Shown in pieces: positions 1-47,453 of a stretch of 49,404 nt of DNA. The notes beneath the pieces were generated by a model. The model saw only the letters and a list, made by a program, of their open reading frames with translations. It was not told the DNA's origin and did no database searches. Location of the stretch: contig WFVH01000030.1 of NCBI GenBank assembly GCA_015491735.1, forward strand, positions 1-49,404. The letters are read 5' to 3'. How positions within the stretch are numbered: position 1 is the first letter of the stretch; every line of letters begins with the position of its first letter. This DNA is from Gammaproteobacteria bacterium (lineage in GTDB: Bacteria > Pseudomonadota > Gammaproteobacteria > Thiohalospirales > Thiohalospiraceae). The position numbers and the translations under genes are program-made.

Positions 1-150
1 AACTATTCAGCATAGTATGAAACAAGCCGGTAACTGTTCAGATTGCCCCTGAAATTCGTCAGTTCAAGGCGAAAAATGGGAGTTTACGCGTGTAAATGAC
101 CATTTTTCAACGCAGAAATGGCGGATTTCAGGGGTGAGCTGAATAGTTAC
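1..150 (+). repeat. MITE copy 1 (subfamily A), left edge cut by window
   Basis: This is a copy of the 152-bp element seen five more times in near-identical form. Only the first two bases (GT) of the left terminal repeat GTAACTATTCAG lie outside the window; the right end CTGAATAGTTAC finishes at 150. Inside, a second GGTAACTGTTCAG (29-41) starts a long imperfect palindrome running to the right end, with its centre near the ACGCGT at 87-92. By analogy with the complete copies, the bases after it, CAACATGA (151-158), should be the target duplication, so the same octamer is predicted immediately to the left. Confidence 0.93.
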
Positions 151-4302: not shown

Positions 4303-5434
<1,132 letters not shown>

Positions 5435-12146: not shown

Positions 12147-12336
12147 GTAACTACTCAGCAAATTGTGAAATGTGACGGTAACTGCCCGGCTTGCCCCTGA
12201 AACCCGCCGGTTTCAAGGAGAGACAGGGAGCGCCCGCGCAGCTGTTCCCACGCAGGCCGGTGCGATATCGCAGGGTAACATCCGGTCTGCCACCATGGGC
12301 CACTCTTCAATACGGCAATGGCGGATTTCAGGATCA
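12147..12336 (+). repeat. decayed MITE relic with internal insertion
   Basis: The left end GTAACTACTCAGC (12147-12159) and the inner GGTAACTGCCCGGCTTGCCCC match the MITE family, closest to subfamily B. The right arm TTCAA...GGCAATGGCGGATTTCAG (about 12307-12333) also matches. The middle is replaced by about 60 unrelated bases, and the right terminus and target duplication are not recognisable. It sits upstream of the DUF2155-like lipoprotein gene and downstream of the DUF4126 gene. Confidence 0.7.
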
Positions 12337-12425
12337 AACAGCCGCACTATCCGGACGAACGGCGCAGATCCCTCCGCCACACCATGGTACAAGTGACAAG
12401 CCGCTGGGGGAAAAATTCCGTGAAA

Positions 12426-15732: not shown

Positions 15733-15876
15733 CGCTGTTTCCCCTCAAAAAAGCAGAAAAACCGCCTGCGGTACCCCCTGCAAACGGCTGTTAACCTGGC
15801 AACTATTCCGACCGGCCTCGGCAGCTGCGTACTCACATGCGGCACGTGACAGCGTTCCGGTGCAAGAATCGATAAT

Positions 15877-16021
15877 CACTCACAAGCCTGAAATACGCCT
15901 TTCTTGCGTTGAAAAACGGCCATTCATGCCGAACGCCCCCGGATCTCCAGAAATGGCCTCACCGCAAACTCACGTTTTACGCCTTGAACTGACGGATTTC
16001 AGGGGAAATCCGGGCAGTGAA
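15877..16021 (-). repeat. decayed MITE relic, reverse orientation
   Basis: CACTCACAAGCCTGAAATACGCC, read in pieces through TTGCGTTGAAAAACGGCCATT, matches the right arm of the 152-bp element in reverse. CTCACGTTTTACGCCTTGAACTGACGG and ATTTCAGGGGAAATCCGGGCAGT match the left inner arm. About 30 extra bases separate the arms, and terminal repeats and target duplication are lost. It fills part of the 15733-16175 gap, in which no gene was seen. Confidence 0.7.
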
Positions 16022-24093: not shown

Positions 24094-24123
24094 CGGAGTC
24101 CACCCAACCATTAATCGATTGTC

Positions 24124-24275
24124 ATAACTAATCAGCATAGTATGAAACAAGCCGGTAACTATTCAGATTGCCCCTGAAATTCGTCAGTTCAAGGCGAAAA
24201 ATGGGAGTTTACGCGTGTAAATGACCATTTTTCAACGCAGAAATGGCGGATTTCAGGGGTGAGCTGAATAGTTAC
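24124..24275 (+). repeat. MITE copy 2 (subfamily A), complete, 8-bp target duplication
   Basis: Full 152-bp element. Its left end reads ATAACTAATCAG, two changes from GTAACTATTCAG; the right end CTGAATAGTTAC is exact. Flanks are identical octamers CGATTGTC (24116-24123 and 24276-24283). It lies between the ends of folD and cysS, where its long hairpin could also terminate transcripts from both sides. Confidence 0.95.
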
Positions 24276-24305
24276 CGATTGTCTTGTTATTAGCAGGGAT
24301 TGGCA

Positions 24306-27206: not shown

Positions 27207-27358
27207 GTAATTACTCGGCGAATTGCAAAATATTATGGTCACTGCTCAGCTTGCCCCAAAATCCGTCGGTTCAAGGCGGGAAATGCAGGTTCACGCATGT
27301 AAATTCCCCCTTTTTCAACGCGGAAATGGCAGATTTCGGGGGCAAGCTGAGTAACTAC
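27207..27358 (+). repeat. MITE copy 3 (subfamily B), complete, 8-bp target duplication
   Basis: Exactly 152 bp and collinear with subfamily A, but differing at roughly a quarter of positions by eye. The left end is GTAATTACTCGGC and the right end CTGAGTAACTAC. Flanking octamers CAATCGAC (27199-27206 and 27359-27366) are identical. The unchanged duplication beside a diverged body means this is a separate active subfamily, not a decayed A copy. The right duplication overlaps the stop codon of the DUF4412 gene. Confidence 0.9.
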
Positions 27359-28301: not shown

Positions 28302-28889
28302 GTGAACCGTCATTTCAAGATAATACCCCTGCTTCTGTTATTGCTGATATCCCCTGGTTCCGTATTTGGCGCCGAATCCTCTCCCCGGGTCACTCTGCAG
28401 ACCACCCTTGGGGATATCACTGTGGAGCTTGACCGGGAGCATGCTCCAGTCACCGTTAAAAACTTTCTGCGCTATGTGCAGGAGGGATTTTATGACAATA
28501 CCGTTTTTCACCGCGTCATCAACGGGTTTATGATCCAGGGGGGGGGATTCACACCGGACTTCGAGCGCAAACAGACCTACGCCCCCATCGAGAATGAAGC
28601 AGACAACGGACTCAAGAACAGGAGAGGAACCATTGCGATGGCGCGCACCGGGAATCCCCACTCGGCGACAGCGCAGTTCTTCATCAATGTGGCCGATAAC
28701 AAATTTCTCGATCATACCCGCCCCACCCGTAACGGCTGGGGTTATACCGTATTCGGAAAGGTGGTCGGTGGAATGGATACAGTAGACAAAATACGCAAAG
28801 CCCCCACCGGCGCCGGGGGTCCTTTTCCAAAAGATGTACCGGTCGATCCGGTCATCATAAAAAAAGCCATCTTGCACCCATCCAACTGA
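28302..28889 (+). CDS. periplasmic cyclophilin-type peptidyl-prolyl isomerase
   Basis: This protein of about 195 residues starts at GTG 28302, with GGAGG six bases upstream; the in-frame ATG at 28281 would add seven residues and has no ribosome site. A signal peptide ([18 protein letters not shown]) is followed by a complete PpiA/PpiB-type cyclophilin domain: [30 protein letters not shown] with the catalytic arginine, and [12 protein letters not shown]. It isomerises prolines during folding of exported proteins. The next gene is a cytoplasmic paralogue 15 bases downstream. Confidence 0.92.
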
Positions 28890-28904: not shown

Positions 28905-29399
28905 ATGGTAAAAATACAGACCAATCTTGGTGTCATCACACTGGAGCTGGACGAAGGAAAAGCACCTGAAACAGTCGCGAATTTCCTGCAGTATGCAAGG
29001 GAAGGATTCTATGATGGCACTATTTTTCATCGCGTCATCAATGGCTTCATGATCCAGGGAGGGGGGATGGAGTCAGGCCTGATCCAAAAAGCTACCCGGG
29101 AGCCAATCAGAAACGAGGCTGACAATGGCTTGAGTAACCTCAATGGAACCATTGCAATGGCCCGCACCATGGATCCGCACTCGGCGACAGCGCAGTTTTT
29201 TATCAATGTAGCCGATAACGGCTTTCTGGATCACACGGCGAAAGACAGCCAGGGGTGGGGTTACTGCGTATTTGGAAGGGTGACGGACGGAATGGATGTC
29301 GTGAACAAAATCAAGCAGGTCGAAACGACCAGTCAGGGCGGTCATCAAGATGTACCGCTCGAAGAGATCGTCATCGAAAAAACAATCATTGATGAGTAG
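28905..29399 (+). CDS. ppiB: cytoplasmic peptidyl-prolyl isomerase B
   Basis: This 164-residue cyclophilin has no signal peptide: [36 protein letters not shown] (catalytic Arg, Gln), [20 protein letters not shown] and [18 protein letters not shown] precedes the ATG at good spacing. It shares long identical stretches with the periplasmic neighbour, so the pair looks like a tandem duplication with retargeting. The following lpxH start codon lies inside its last codons, matching the E. coli order ppiB-lpxH with cysS nearby. Confidence 0.95.
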
Positions 29400-31453: not shown

Positions 31454-31605
31454 GTAACTATTCAGCTCACCCCTGAAATCCGCCATTTCTGCGTTGAAAA
31501 ATGGTCATTTACACCCGTAAACTCCCATTTTTCGCCTTGAACTGACGAATTTCAGGGGCAATCTGAACAGTTACCGGCTTGTTTCATGCTATGCTGAATA
31601 GTTAC
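31454..31605 (-). repeat. MITE copy 4 (subfamily A), reverse orientation, 8-bp target duplication
   Basis: Full 152 bp with exact ends GTAACTATTCAG and CTGAATAGTTAC. Flanking octamers CCATCAGG (31446-31453 and 31606-31613) are identical. It sits 60 bases upstream of the octaheme cytochrome start, so it probably lies within or replaces part of that promoter region. Confidence 0.95.
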
Positions 31606-31710: not shown

Positions 31711-31805
31711 GCAACCATTCAGCCAGTCCCCGTATTTTGTCCGCTCAAAGGCGAAAAATGTGAGTTTACAGTAATCTCGAATGCCACAACTCGCCGGGTA
31801 GTTAC
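31711..31805 (-). repeat. deleted MITE relic, reverse orientation
   Basis: GCAACCATTCAGCCAGTCCCC (in two parts from 31711) and AAGGCGAAAAATGTGAGTTTAC match one inner arm. The end GGCGAGTTGTGGCATT/GTAACTACCCGG (as the reverse of 31790-31805) matches the left terminus of subfamily B. The element is 95 bases long, so about 57 bases are missing. No target duplication remains. Together with copy 4 it fills most of the gap before the beta-propeller gene. Confidence 0.6.
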
Positions 31806-40378: not shown

Positions 40379-40530
40379 GTAACTATTCAGCTCACCCCTG
40401 AAATCCGCCATTTCTGCGTTGAAAAATGGTCATTTACACGCGTAAACCCCCATTTTTCGCCTTGAACTGACGAATTTCAGGGGTAATCTGAACAGTTACC
40501 GGCTTGTTTCATACGATGCTGAATAGTTAC
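40379..40530 (-). repeat. MITE copy 5 (subfamily A), reverse orientation, 8-bp target duplication
   Basis: Full 152 bp with exact ends. The flanking octamers CAATCCTT (40371-40378 and 40531-40538) are identical, and the right one overlaps the stop codon of sdhB (TAA at 40539-40537). It lies in the convergent gap between the DUF937-like gene and sdhB. Confidence 0.95.
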
Positions 40531-40536
40531 CAATCC

Positions 40537-41241
40537 TTAAAGAATATGCTTGAGCATCGTCTGCTTGATGCGCCCTATGGCCTTGGTTGGATTCAGCCCT
40601 TTGGGGCACACCTCTACGCAGTTCATGATACTGCGGCAGCGAAACAGCCGGTAAGGTCCTTCCAGTTCACTGAGCCGCTCCGCAGTGGCCTGATCACGGC
40701 TGTCTGCCAGAAAACGCCATGACTGCAACAGCGCTGCCGGACCGCGAAAACCATCCGGGTTCCACCAGAACGAAGGACAGGATGTGGTGCAACAACCACA
40801 CAGAATGCATTCATACAGGCCATCCAGCCGATCGCGCTCGTCAGGGGATTGAAGGCGCTCCACCTCCGGCTCGGGATCGTGGGCTACCAGGTAAGGCTTG
40901 ATCGAGCGGTAGTGTTCAAAAAAACGGTCCATATCCACCACCAGATCGCGGATTACCGGCATTCCGGGCAGGGGGCGCACCTCTATCGGTTGTTTGAGAT
41001 CAGTCAGCGGGGTGATACAACCCAGTCCGTTACGCCCGTTGATATTCAAGGCGTCTGAACCACAAACACCCTCTCCGCAGGAGTGGCGAAATACCAGGGT
41101 TTCATCTATTTCCCTGATACGCAGCAGAGCATCGCGCAGCATCATTCCCGGCTGGATATCGTCCAGCCGATACTCCTGCATGTAGGAGCCACCATCTATC
41201 TCGGGGTTGTATCGATAGATTGAAAAACGTGCACTGCTCAT
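40537..41241 (-). CDS. sdhB: succinate dehydrogenase iron-sulfur subunit
   Basis: This 234-residue subunit carries the 2Fe-2S site (HSCGEGVCGSDALNINGRNGL with Cys55 and Cys60; Asp63 replaces a cysteine as in E. coli), then the 4Fe-4S and 3Fe-4S ligands CILCGCCTTSCPSFWW and CRSIMNCVEVCPKGLNPTKA. It passes electrons from SdhA to the quinone site. It is last in the sdhC-D-A-B operon, six bases after sdhA. Its stop codon lies within the target duplication of a MITE. Confidence 0.97.
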   Translation of the reverse strand: MSSARFSIYRYNPEIDGGSYMQEYRLDDIQPGMMLRDALLRIREIDETLVFRHSCGEGVCGSDALNINGRNGLGCITPLTDLKQPIEVRPLPGMPVIRDLVVDMDRFFEHYRSIKPYLVAHDPEPEVERLQSPDERDRLDGLYECILCGCCTTSCPSFWWNPDGFRGPAALLQSWRFLADSRDQATAERLSELEGPYRLFRCRSIMNCVEVCPKGLNPTKAIGRIKQTMLKHIL

Positions 41242-45302: not shown

Positions 45303-45454
45303 GTAACTATTCAGCATGGTATGAAACAGGCCGGCAACTGTTCAGATTGCCCCTGAAATTCGTCAGTTCAAGGCGAAAAATGTGAGTTTACGCGTGTAAA
45401 TGACCATTTTTCAACGCAGAAATGGCGAATTTCAGGGGTGAGCTGAATAGTTAC
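45303..45454 (+). repeat. MITE copy 6 (subfamily A), 8-bp target duplication
   Basis: Full 152 bp with exact terminal repeats GTAACTATTCAG and CTGAATAGTTAC. The flanking octamers TGAAACGG (45295-45302 and 45455-45462) are identical. It lies in the gap between ygfZ and the asparagine-synthetase-like gene, in the same orientation as copy 7. Confidence 0.95.
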
Positions 45455-45562
45455 TGAAACGGTATCTACCGGGAAAAACGGAAAACCGGTGCGCAAGGAA
45501 ACCGGTAAAGATGTGACACAACAGTCTTGTTAATTGCCAAACCCGTGAAGGGAGCAAAATAT

Positions 45563-47305
45563 ATGTCCAAAGTTTTATATGCCTGTAGCCGAAATCATAA
45601 TTTCACCAAAACCACCGAGAACAAGTTGCTTGAGATTTGCAATGAGCTTGTACCCGATAACGTGAGGAGATGCCCCGAACATGGAGTAAGAGTGAACGGC
45701 CGCCTGGCTTATGCCCTGTGTATGAACAACTGCGCACTCCAGGAATCCGGCATGAGCCTGTTATTGGGGTTTCTTTATGCAAAACCCGGGGAGGACTGGA
45801 CGAAACCAGGGCACAACCATCCAGACGGAAATTATGCACTGTTCAGAAACAGCGATGATGAAGTAGAAATCCTGAGTGATGCCGTTGGATCAAGGACAAT
45901 CTGGTACTATCATGATAACGAGCTATTTGTTGCGTCAACATCGCAACGTGCAATCATACTGTTTTTGGGGACATTTTTTTTTGATGCAAGAGTAATCCCC
46001 TGGGTACTGTCTACCGGCTCATTGGGGCCACAGTTTTCCTGGGACAAACGGCTGCAGAGACTGCAGCCTGACTCCTCTGTGTTGCTCAACAAAAAAACAT
46101 GGGATCTATCCGTGAATCAGAATCCTGTCGTTTTTTCCGAAGCAAAACGCCCACGGGAAGAGCACAAAAGGCTATTGAGTAATGCAATAAGGCAAACAGT
46201 CAACTTTCTTGAGCCCATTGACTTTGCTCATTGGGTGCTACCACTTTCTGGTGGATACGATAGCAGGGCAATATTGTGCTTTCTCAAGGAGCAACTTGGC
46301 ATCCCCAAAGACTTCAAGACAGTAACATGGGGATTGGAATCATCAGCACATAAAGATGGAAATGATGCAAAAGTTGCCAGGGAAACAGCTCGCTCTGTCG
46401 GAGTACAACACAGTTACTACCATACCGATATATCTTCCGAACCCATAGAAGAGATTATTGACAGGTACCTTCTTTGCAGCGAAGGTCGCATAGATCACCT
46501 TGCAGGATACATGGATGGAATGGAAATCTGGAGAAAATTTCATGATAGCAATATAGCCGGAGTGATTAGAGGTGACGAAGGATTTGGATGGACCCGGGTG
46601 TCGTCAGAACTGGATGTCAGGCTATCTGTTGGGTGCCCATTATGTACTGACTATGAGAACATAAAGAACATCATTGGGGACTTTGATTTGCCATCGCAAC
46701 AACTGCCACCGGAGTTTATAAAAAAAGAAGAAGAAAGCCTTGGTGCATGGCGTGACCGGCTTTACCATGCATACCGAATACCAACCATACTTTCTGCTTT
46801 GTCAGATATTAAGCTTTCATATGTAGAACAGATTAACCCTTTGCTTTCCAAGAAAATACTAACTGTCGCAAGAAGCCTCCCGGATAACCTAAGAACAGAC
46901 AAAACGCTTTTTAAAGAAATAGTTGGCGCAATCGGGCCGAATGTTCCCTTCGCCAATAAAGGCGCAAATGCAAATCCAAAACAGATACTCGGAAGCAAAG
47001 CGCTTGTTGAACTCCTTAAAAGCGAGATTGGCAGCAATTATGCAAACAGTCTCTTTGGGGAGATGTTTGCAAAGTATATTTTTGACGGAATCAAGGAAAG
47101 CCAGCCGAAAGCGAAAACTCGACGACAAAAATTCAAGGAAGGCATCCGCTTGATTCTGCCACAATTCATAAAGGACTTTATTCGCAGTAAAACATTACGT
47201 CCAAGAATCGATAGTAATGTTTTGGCATTTCGTGTTTTTATCATCATCAAAATGCACAAAACTCTTGAGGCAGACGCCGCAAAATCAACCCGTAACACAT
47301 CGTAA
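45563..47305 (+). CDS. asparagine-synthetase-like protein without glutaminase cysteine
   Basis: This 580-residue protein starts at ATG 45563 with AAGGGAG about nine bases upstream. The C-terminal half has the PP-loop SGGYDSR (229-235) of asparagine synthetase-type adenylating enzymes, then TWGLESSAHKDGNDAKVA and GDEGFGWTR. The N-terminal half keeps the class II amidotransferase outline (HPDGNYALFRN, ILSDAVGSRTIWYY), but residue 2 is Ser, not the nucleophilic Cys, so glutamine use is unlikely. Such variants include beta-lactam synthetases and lasso-peptide cyclases as well as polysaccharide-modifying enzymes. The gene is visibly AT-richer than its neighbours, suggesting transfer, and a MITE provides its stop codon. 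Confidence 0.75.
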   Translation: MSKVLYACSRNHNFTKTTENKLLEICNELVPDNVRRCPEHGVRVNGRLAYALCMNNCALQESGMSLLLGFLYAKPGEDWTKPGHNHPDGNYALFRNSDDEVEILSDAVGSRTIWYYHDNELFVASTSQRAIILFLGTFFFDARVIPWVLSTGSLGPQFSWDKRLQRLQPDSSVLLNKKTWDLSVNQNPVVFSEAKRPREEHKRLLSNAIRQTVNFLEPIDFAHWVLPLSGGYDSRAILCFLKEQLGIPKDFKTVTWGLESSAHKDGNDAKVARETARSVGVQHSYYHTDISSEPIEEIIDRYLLCSEGRIDHLAGYMDGMEIWRKFHDSNIAGVIRGDEGFGWTRVSSELDVRLSVGCPLCTDYENIKNIIGDFDLPSQQLPPEFIKKEEESLGAWRDRLYHAYRIPTILSALSDIKLSYVEQINPLLSKKILTVARSLPDNLRTDKTLFKEIVGAIGPNVPFANKGANANPKQILGSKALVELLKSEIGSNYANSLFGEMFAKYIFDGIKESQPKAKTRRQKFKEGIRLILPQFIKDFIRSKTLRPRIDSNVLAFRVFIIIKMHKTLEADAAKSTRNTS

Positions 47306-47453
47306 CTATTCAGCATAGTATAAAACAAGCCGGTAACTGTTCAGATTGCCCCTGAAATTCGTCAGTTCAAGGCGAAAAATGGGAGTTTGCGCGTGTAAAT
47401 GACCATTTTTCAACGCAGAAATGGCGGATTTCAGGGGTGAGCTGAATAGTTAC
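47302..47453 (+). repeat. MITE copy 7 (subfamily A), 8-bp target duplication, supplies a stop codon
   Basis: Full 152 bp with exact ends and identical flanking octamers AACACATC (47294-47301 and 47454-47461). Insertion cut the asparagine-synthetase-like gene: its TAA (47303-47305) is bases 2-4 of the element. Removing the element and one octamer restores a frame that continues ACA TCC AGC ATC AGG and stops at a TAA near 47492, seven residues longer. Confidence 0.95.

What the first reader, a model, noticed from the sequence alone, without database searches (positions are those of the whole stretch)
24116..24283. A dense family of 152-bp MITEs with 12-bp terminal repeats and perfect 8-bp target duplications
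Seven elements of one length, 152 bp, occur in 49 kb: 1-150 (two bases outside), 24124-24275, 27207-27358, 31454-31605, 40379-40530, 45303-45454 and 47302-47453. Ends are GTAACTATTCAG and CTGAATAGTTAC. Each complete copy has identical flanking octamers: CGATTGTC, CAATCGAC, CCATCAGG, CAATCCTT, TGAAACGG and AACACATC. The six octamers differ from each other, so these are true transposition scars. Most copies are nearly identical, implying recent movement. Inside is a second left-end copy and a long imperfect hairpin. Ends beginning GTAA with 8-bp duplications fit the IS66 family, so an IS66-type transposase elsewhere may drive them (inference).
Basis: partly seen in the sequence, partly recalled or inferred. 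Interest (0 to 1): 0.88.

Follow-up and report, generated by a model that had tools for sequence, protein, structure and literature searches.

The report
IS66-driven mini-transposon with doubled end
A tiny gene-less jumping DNA, present in about 216 copies in this bacterium and in many relatives in two bacterial classes, carries the end sequences, scar length and target preference of one branch of the IS66 transposons, and keeps an unusual doubled left end and a conserved hairpin that nobody seems to have described.

Summary
Seven 152-bp elements are in the window; the six complete ones have perfect, mutually different 8-bp duplications. The genome (2.43 Mb) holds about 216 copies. In 783 kb sampled, 43 of 65 full copies have perfect duplications, all different, and sit in a WW-N8-WW target. 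The IS66 guess is right and can be narrowed to the single-gene (tnpC-only, ISBst12-type) branch. Several such ISs, including ISGst1, share the 12-bp end, the 8-bp duplication and the A/T-flanked target; ISDge4 of that group has the same ends and duplicates 8 bp (PMC12898284). The window genome keeps only a wrecked IS66 gene, whose left end is exactly GTAACTATTCAG. The element is not an internal deletion of any IS seen. New here: the layout outer end, about 31 bp, inner end, 121-bp hairpin recurs in two classes. Spacer sequence is free while spacing is nearly fixed; the 121-bp part also jumps alone; the hairpin covaries strongly, with one-strand wobble bias.

The parts
1..150 (+). MITE copy 1, missing its first 2 bases at the contig edge; core 30-150
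   Evidence: left half with CAACATGAGT found at the end of contig C61
151..158 (.). right target duplication CAACATGA of copy 1
24124..24275 (+). MITE copy, outer left end mutated to ATAACTAATCAG, inner end consensus; octamers CGATTGTC at 24116-24123 and 24276-24283
24124..24135 (+). outer left terminal repeat
24155..24275 (+). 121-bp hairpin core, beginning with the inner left end 24155-24166 and ending with the right terminal repeat 24264-24275
27207..27358 (+). old MITE copy (about 79% identical), octamers CAATCGAC; uninterrupted at the same place in congener G004
31454..31605 (-). MITE copy in reverse orientation, octamers CCATCAGG
40379..40530 (-). MITE copy in reverse orientation, octamers CAATCCTT; duplication overlaps the stop codon of ORF 40537-41241(-)
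45303..45454 (+). MITE copy, octamers TGAAACGG
47302..47453 (+). MITE copy used as query, octamers AACACATC; its GTAA end supplies the TAA stop of ORF 45527-47305
15875..16021 (-). decayed MITE relic
   Evidence: cmsearch with model R1, 37.7 bits, E 2.8e-8
12147..12350 (+). decayed MITE relic
   Evidence: blastn 12147-12230; 12178-12350, E 0.0012

Best explanation
This is a type II MITE: a non-autonomous transposon that shares only its terminal repeats with its driver. It is moved in trans by tnpC-only (ISBst12-type) IS66 transposases. The transposase recognises GTAACTAYTCAG at the ends, inserts into A/T-flanked sites (WW-N8-WW) and leaves an 8-bp duplication. Shown here: copies, duplications, target preference, the matching IS family and a wrecked IS66 gene with the same end. 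Inferred: trans-mobilisation itself. The left side carries two end motifs 31 bp apart (about three helical turns; 21 bp, about two turns, in two copies), most likely a tandem transposase-binding site. The inner motif works as an end by itself: 121-bp solo copies have their own perfect duplications. The 121-bp core folds on itself over its whole length and has kept that ability through many paired substitutions across two classes, with G.T/G.U wobble on one strand only. I infer that the hairpin matters to the element as a single strand (ssDNA or RNA), not to neighbouring genes, because copies show no orientation bias.
For: TSDs. About 216 copies. WW flanks 156/172 against 50% background, p about 3e-30, repeated in other genomes at 26, 24, 23 and 26 of 28. 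tnpC-only ISs with the same end, 8-bp TSD and A/T flanks: L058, L060, L062, L063 and ISGst1. IS66 relic with exact left end in the own genome; 81%-identical 476-aa relative L044 with both ends; IS66 fragments with exact right ends in congener G002 and in MITE host G327. ISDge4, ISBst12 group: ends GTGACTACTCAGCA/GTAACTGCTCAGCA, 8-bp DR, shown to move (PMC12898284). Empty site. Left arm 31 bp in 27/37 copies while spacers are only 36% identical. Solo 121-bp copies with TSD: L093, L114, L125, L163. Covariation: 26/44 pairs changed on both sides, 96.9% paired, 0/500 shuffles. No orientation bias, 24 vs 20.
Against: No intact driver in the own genome, and several MITE-rich genomes, including the 10-contig G147, show no IS66 gene. 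No IS seen carries the hairpin core, so descent from a specific IS is not shown. L044 itself has no duplication. 17 of 65 full copies lack duplications, presumably recombined or eroded. The 21-bp spacing rests on two copies of one genome; three other-class copies have 30, 32 and 34 bp. Strand bias by site is only 6 vs 0 (p 0.03).
Confidence: 0.85

Rival explanations
1. The MITE is driven by another transposase family that also makes 8-bp duplications (for example ISL3, IS1595, ISAs1), and the IS66 end match is coincidence.
For: The own genome has only a relic IS66 gene; some MITE hosts have none. Other families with 8-bp scars exist (general knowledge).
Against: Twelve matching end bases, the same 8-bp scar and the same A/T target flanks recur in several independent tnpC-only IS66 elements, including one from Geobacillus and ISDge4 (PMC12898284). 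Other transposase families were not searched in the own genome.
Confidence: 0.07
2. The element is domesticated: the hairpin serves the host as a 3'-UTR structure, terminator or small RNA, and copies are kept for that.
For: 63 of 65 copies are intergenic or at gene edges, with most per kb in convergent gaps. Deep covariation.
Against: No orientation bias relative to genes (24 vs 20); no terminator or promoter match; no Rfam match; changes scattered among single copies show no G.U preference (40 vs 33), as expected of neutral decay after insertion. Intergenic location follows from selection against gene disruption.
Confidence: 0.12
3. The paired substitutions are not selection on a single strand but arm-to-arm DNA correction (gene conversion or hairpin template switching), which keeps the arms complementary mechanically.
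For: Such correction is known for long palindromes (general knowledge); arms of young copies are still imperfect.
Against: Conserved mismatched internal loops (TCAAGGCG facing CAACGCAG) persist across two classes, and wobble mismatches lie on one strand only (132 G.T against 20 A.C cells in a strand-neutral register); correction should erase both.
Confidence: 0.2

Closest known systems
ISBst12-type (tnpC-only) IS66 elements: ISDge4, ISGst1
   Same: terminal repeat GTAACTATTCAGC or GTRACTRCTCAGCA, 8-bp duplication, single tnpC gene, A/T-flanked target
   Different: They carry a transposase, no 121-bp hairpin core and no second end motif seen 31 bp inside.
QMITE2 of Coxiella burnetii (PMC5896051)
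   Same: 150-190 bp, duplications of 7-11 bp, hairpin, intergenic and 3'-UTR sites, relatives in another class, short forms
   Different: TIR of about 22-26 nt, GTAG-REP-like core, duplications of variable length, no driver named. Sequences were not compared here.
MITEAba12 (PMC6382973)
   Same: short MITE driven in trans by an IS with matching TIRs, spread over one family
   Different: 113 bp, 16-bp TIR, 9-bp duplication, ISAba12 driver, few copies, no doubled end
MITECca01 of Cardinium (PMC9769881)
   Same: very high copy number in one genome (169 copies, 3.5%), mostly intergenic
   Different: derived from IS982-family ISCca4, parent still intact, lineage-specific

Membership tests
MITE (bacterial) | short, no coding capacity, terminal inverted repeats | tested here: met
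   152 bp, 12-bp TIRs; too short to hold a transposase
MITE (bacterial) | target-site duplications of fixed length | tested here: met
   43 of 65 perfect 8-bp, all different
MITE (bacterial) | many dispersed copies and empty orthologous sites | tested here: met
   about 216 copies; uninterrupted site in G004
IS66, tnpC-only (ISBst12-type) as driver | same terminal repeats | tested here: met
   ISDge4 in PMC12898284
IS66, tnpC-only (ISBst12-type) as driver | 8-bp duplication and same target preference | tested here: met
   target flanks known for only five ISs
IS66, tnpC-only (ISBst12-type) as driver | a driver in the same genome | tested here: inconclusive
   one truncated tnpC gene with matching left end; repeats are often lost from a 101-contig assembly
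IS66, tnpC-only (ISBst12-type) as driver | TnpC actually moves the element | not testable with these tools
   needs a transposition assay
Internal-deletion derivative of an IS66 (type I MITE) | subterminal sequence shared with the parent IS | tested here: not met
   end comparison shows 12-14 shared bases only; core absent from 17 IS loci
Known Rfam RNA | covariance-model match | tested here: not met
   no match at E up to 1 over the copy at 47302

The most novel reading that the evidence does not exclude
The 121-bp core is a single-strand nucleic-acid module (RNA or ssDNA) with conserved internal loops that takes part in transposition or its control, for example by presenting the two ends or recruiting a host or transposase protein. 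The doubled left end at a fixed helical phase would be a second, tandem transposase site. If so, MITEs can carry selected structural parts of their own, maintained across bacterial classes, and are not mere leftovers of an IS.
Probability: 0.3. Interest if true: 0.78.

Novelty: new variant of a known kind. Interest (0 to 1): 0.6.

Why it matters
Bacterial MITEs are usually seen as short-lived internal-deletion derivatives of one local IS. This family is found in many genera of two classes, often where no matching IS66 gene was found, yet it keeps its end spacing, hairpin and loops. It gives the poorly studied ISBst12-type IS66 branch a natural minimal substrate (152 bp, or 121 bp), a target rule (WW-N8-WW) and testable predictions about end recognition. 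It also breaks assemblies: many contigs of this genome end inside a copy.

Tried and rejected
Host-serving terminator or UTR role: no orientation bias, no terminator call, no Rfam hit. Phage or plasmid carriage: no hits in IMG/VR, INPHARED or PLSDB. Internal-deletion origin: no subterminal identity and no core in IS loci. Swapped flanks as proof of MITE-MITE recombination in TSD-less copies: no partner in the third of the genome sampled. Tight co-occurrence of MITE and tnpC genes: weak in the sample. Literature search for the end sequence: nothing; the 2024 MITE review does not mention IS66. The empty-site query I pasted lost about 93 bases in its third segment, so that segment was not used.

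Full report
OBSERVATION. Two copies (31454, 40379) are in reverse orientation. Copy 24124 has a mutated outer left end; copy 27207 is an old member. The window is exactly contig 30 of a 101-contig, 2.43-Mb genome, so it begins inside copy 1 because the assembly breaks in this repeat. A search of the genome finds CAACATGAGTAACTATTCAGC once with no mismatch, at the end of contig 61, followed by 146 bases identical to the start of the window. The test is passed.

GENOME SCALE. A 40-base core pattern finds 216 copies with at most 3 mismatches and none for the reversed control, about 1.35% of the genome. In 783 kb taken from the genome there are 65 full interior copies: 43 with perfect octamers, all different, 5 with one mismatch, 17 without. 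Forty-seven of 65 are at least 95% identical to the query copy. At the 27207 copy, congener G004 has the same locus uninterrupted; its octamer region aligns as a single diverged copy. Sixty-three of 65 copies are intergenic or within 30 bp of a gene edge in sequence that my simple ORF model% coding. In gaps between genes of one direction, orientation is 24 against 20; density per kb is higher in convergent than in divergent gaps.

TARGET. The four bases just outside the duplicated octamer are A/T in 156 of 172 cases against 50% in nearby flanks (p about 3e-30). In other genomes the same positions are A/T in 26, 24, 23 and 26 of 28. The target is therefore WW-N8-WW.

DRIVER. The only IS66 gene in the genome is a truncated tnpC, apparently interrupted by an IS200-like transposase gene; 270 bp upstream lies an exact GTAACTATTCAG and no tnpA or tnpB ORF. 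Its 81% relative L044 is an intact 476-aa single-gene IS with GTAACTATTCAG and CTGAATGGTTAC ends (Pfam IS66). More distant single-gene relatives have the same or similar ends with perfect 8-bp duplications and A/T flanks: L058, L060, L062, L063. ISGst1 of Geobacillus plasmid pGS18, annotated as IS66-like, has GTAACTATTCAGC and duplication AAAAGAAC. The literature gives ISDge4, an ISBst12-group IS66 with ends GTGACTACTCAGCA/GTAACTGCTCAGCA and an 8-bp repeat, seen to move (PMC12898284). I conclude that the driver belongs to this branch. The MITE shares only 12-14 end bases with these ISs and its core is in none of them, so it is not a simple internal deletion.

ANATOMY. The element is 31 bp of left arm followed by a 121-bp core that begins with a second end motif (GTAACTGTTCAG) and ends with the right terminal repeat. 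The core folds over its whole length. Of 37 copies with duplications from other genomes, 27 have an arm of exactly 31 bp, two of 21 bp, and three have none. One more 121-bp solo copy with its own duplication, CCGGGCAG, lies in the own genome at L093:3506-3626. So the inner motif is a usable end. Spacers are 36% identical between genomes while the terminal repeats are 95% identical: spacing is kept, sequence is not. Steps of 31 and 21 bp fit a helical phase, but the 21-bp case rests on two copies of one genome.

SPREAD. All seven other genomes of the genus examined carry it. So do 18 of 369 genomes sampled in the class (own genome included), in about a dozen families, and 20 genomes outside the class in a phylum sample. 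There the same layout recurs with perfect duplications and inner ends at 30, 31, 32 and 34 bp. No match in plasmid, phage or viral collections.

HAIRPIN. In an alignment of 29 cores from both classes, 26 of 44 pairs have changes on both sides, 96.9% of cells pair, and no shuffle of 500 reaches any measure; slid registers pair at most 47%. Two unpaired internal-loop segments, TCAAGGCG and CAACGCAG, stay nearly constant. The + strand folds better than the - strand in nearly every copy. With a strand-neutral choice of pairs there are 132 G.T against 20 A.C cells, and six G.T-rich sites against none (p 0.03). Sporadic changes inside single copies show no such bias (40 against 33), so individual copies decay freely. 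I read this as selection on the moving lineage, in single-stranded form. This is inference. Arm-to-arm correction is the main rival, and the kept loops and one-strand wobble speak against it.

STATUS. As a MITE it meets every feature tested. As an IS66-branch passenger it meets end, scar and target tests; mobilisation itself is untested. No described family with this end was found, and the 2024 review of prokaryotic MITEs does not mention IS66; only open-licence papers could be searched. I rate it a new variant of a known kind.

Noticed in passing
window 5017-5304 (-): Group II intron RNA domains (RF02001, 147 bits; RF01998, 69 bits).
   Followed up: no
window 31711-31805: Sequence starting GCAACCATTCAG and ending CGGGTAGTTAC with a core fragment (AAGGCGAAAAATGTGAGTTTAC): a decayed, shortened MITE about 100 bp from the 31454 copy; seen by eye, not reported by model R1.
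   Followed up: partly
window 28584-28717 and 29103-29236: Two 134-nt stretches 76% alike, 519 bp apart, inside neighbouring ORFs: a diverged duplication.
   Followed up: no
window 47302-47305: The GTAA end of the MITE provides the stop codon of ORF 45527-47305; without the insert the frame runs 25 bases past the insertion point.
   Followed up: partly
L031 (G000:C39:10070-13333): The IS66 relic is followed directly by an IS200-like (REP-associated type) transposase ORF, flanked by repeats of ACACATGGGGTCAGGTCTTG.
   Followed up: no
L084:3044-3195: MITE copy whose two flanks read nearly as reverse complements (CATCATTT / CAAATGAT), a possible trace of inversion at the insertion site.
   Followed up: no
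G476 (another class of the phylum): 445 first-look candidates for the MITE in a 2.0-Mb genome: possibly an even denser infestation than in the window genome.
   Followed up: no
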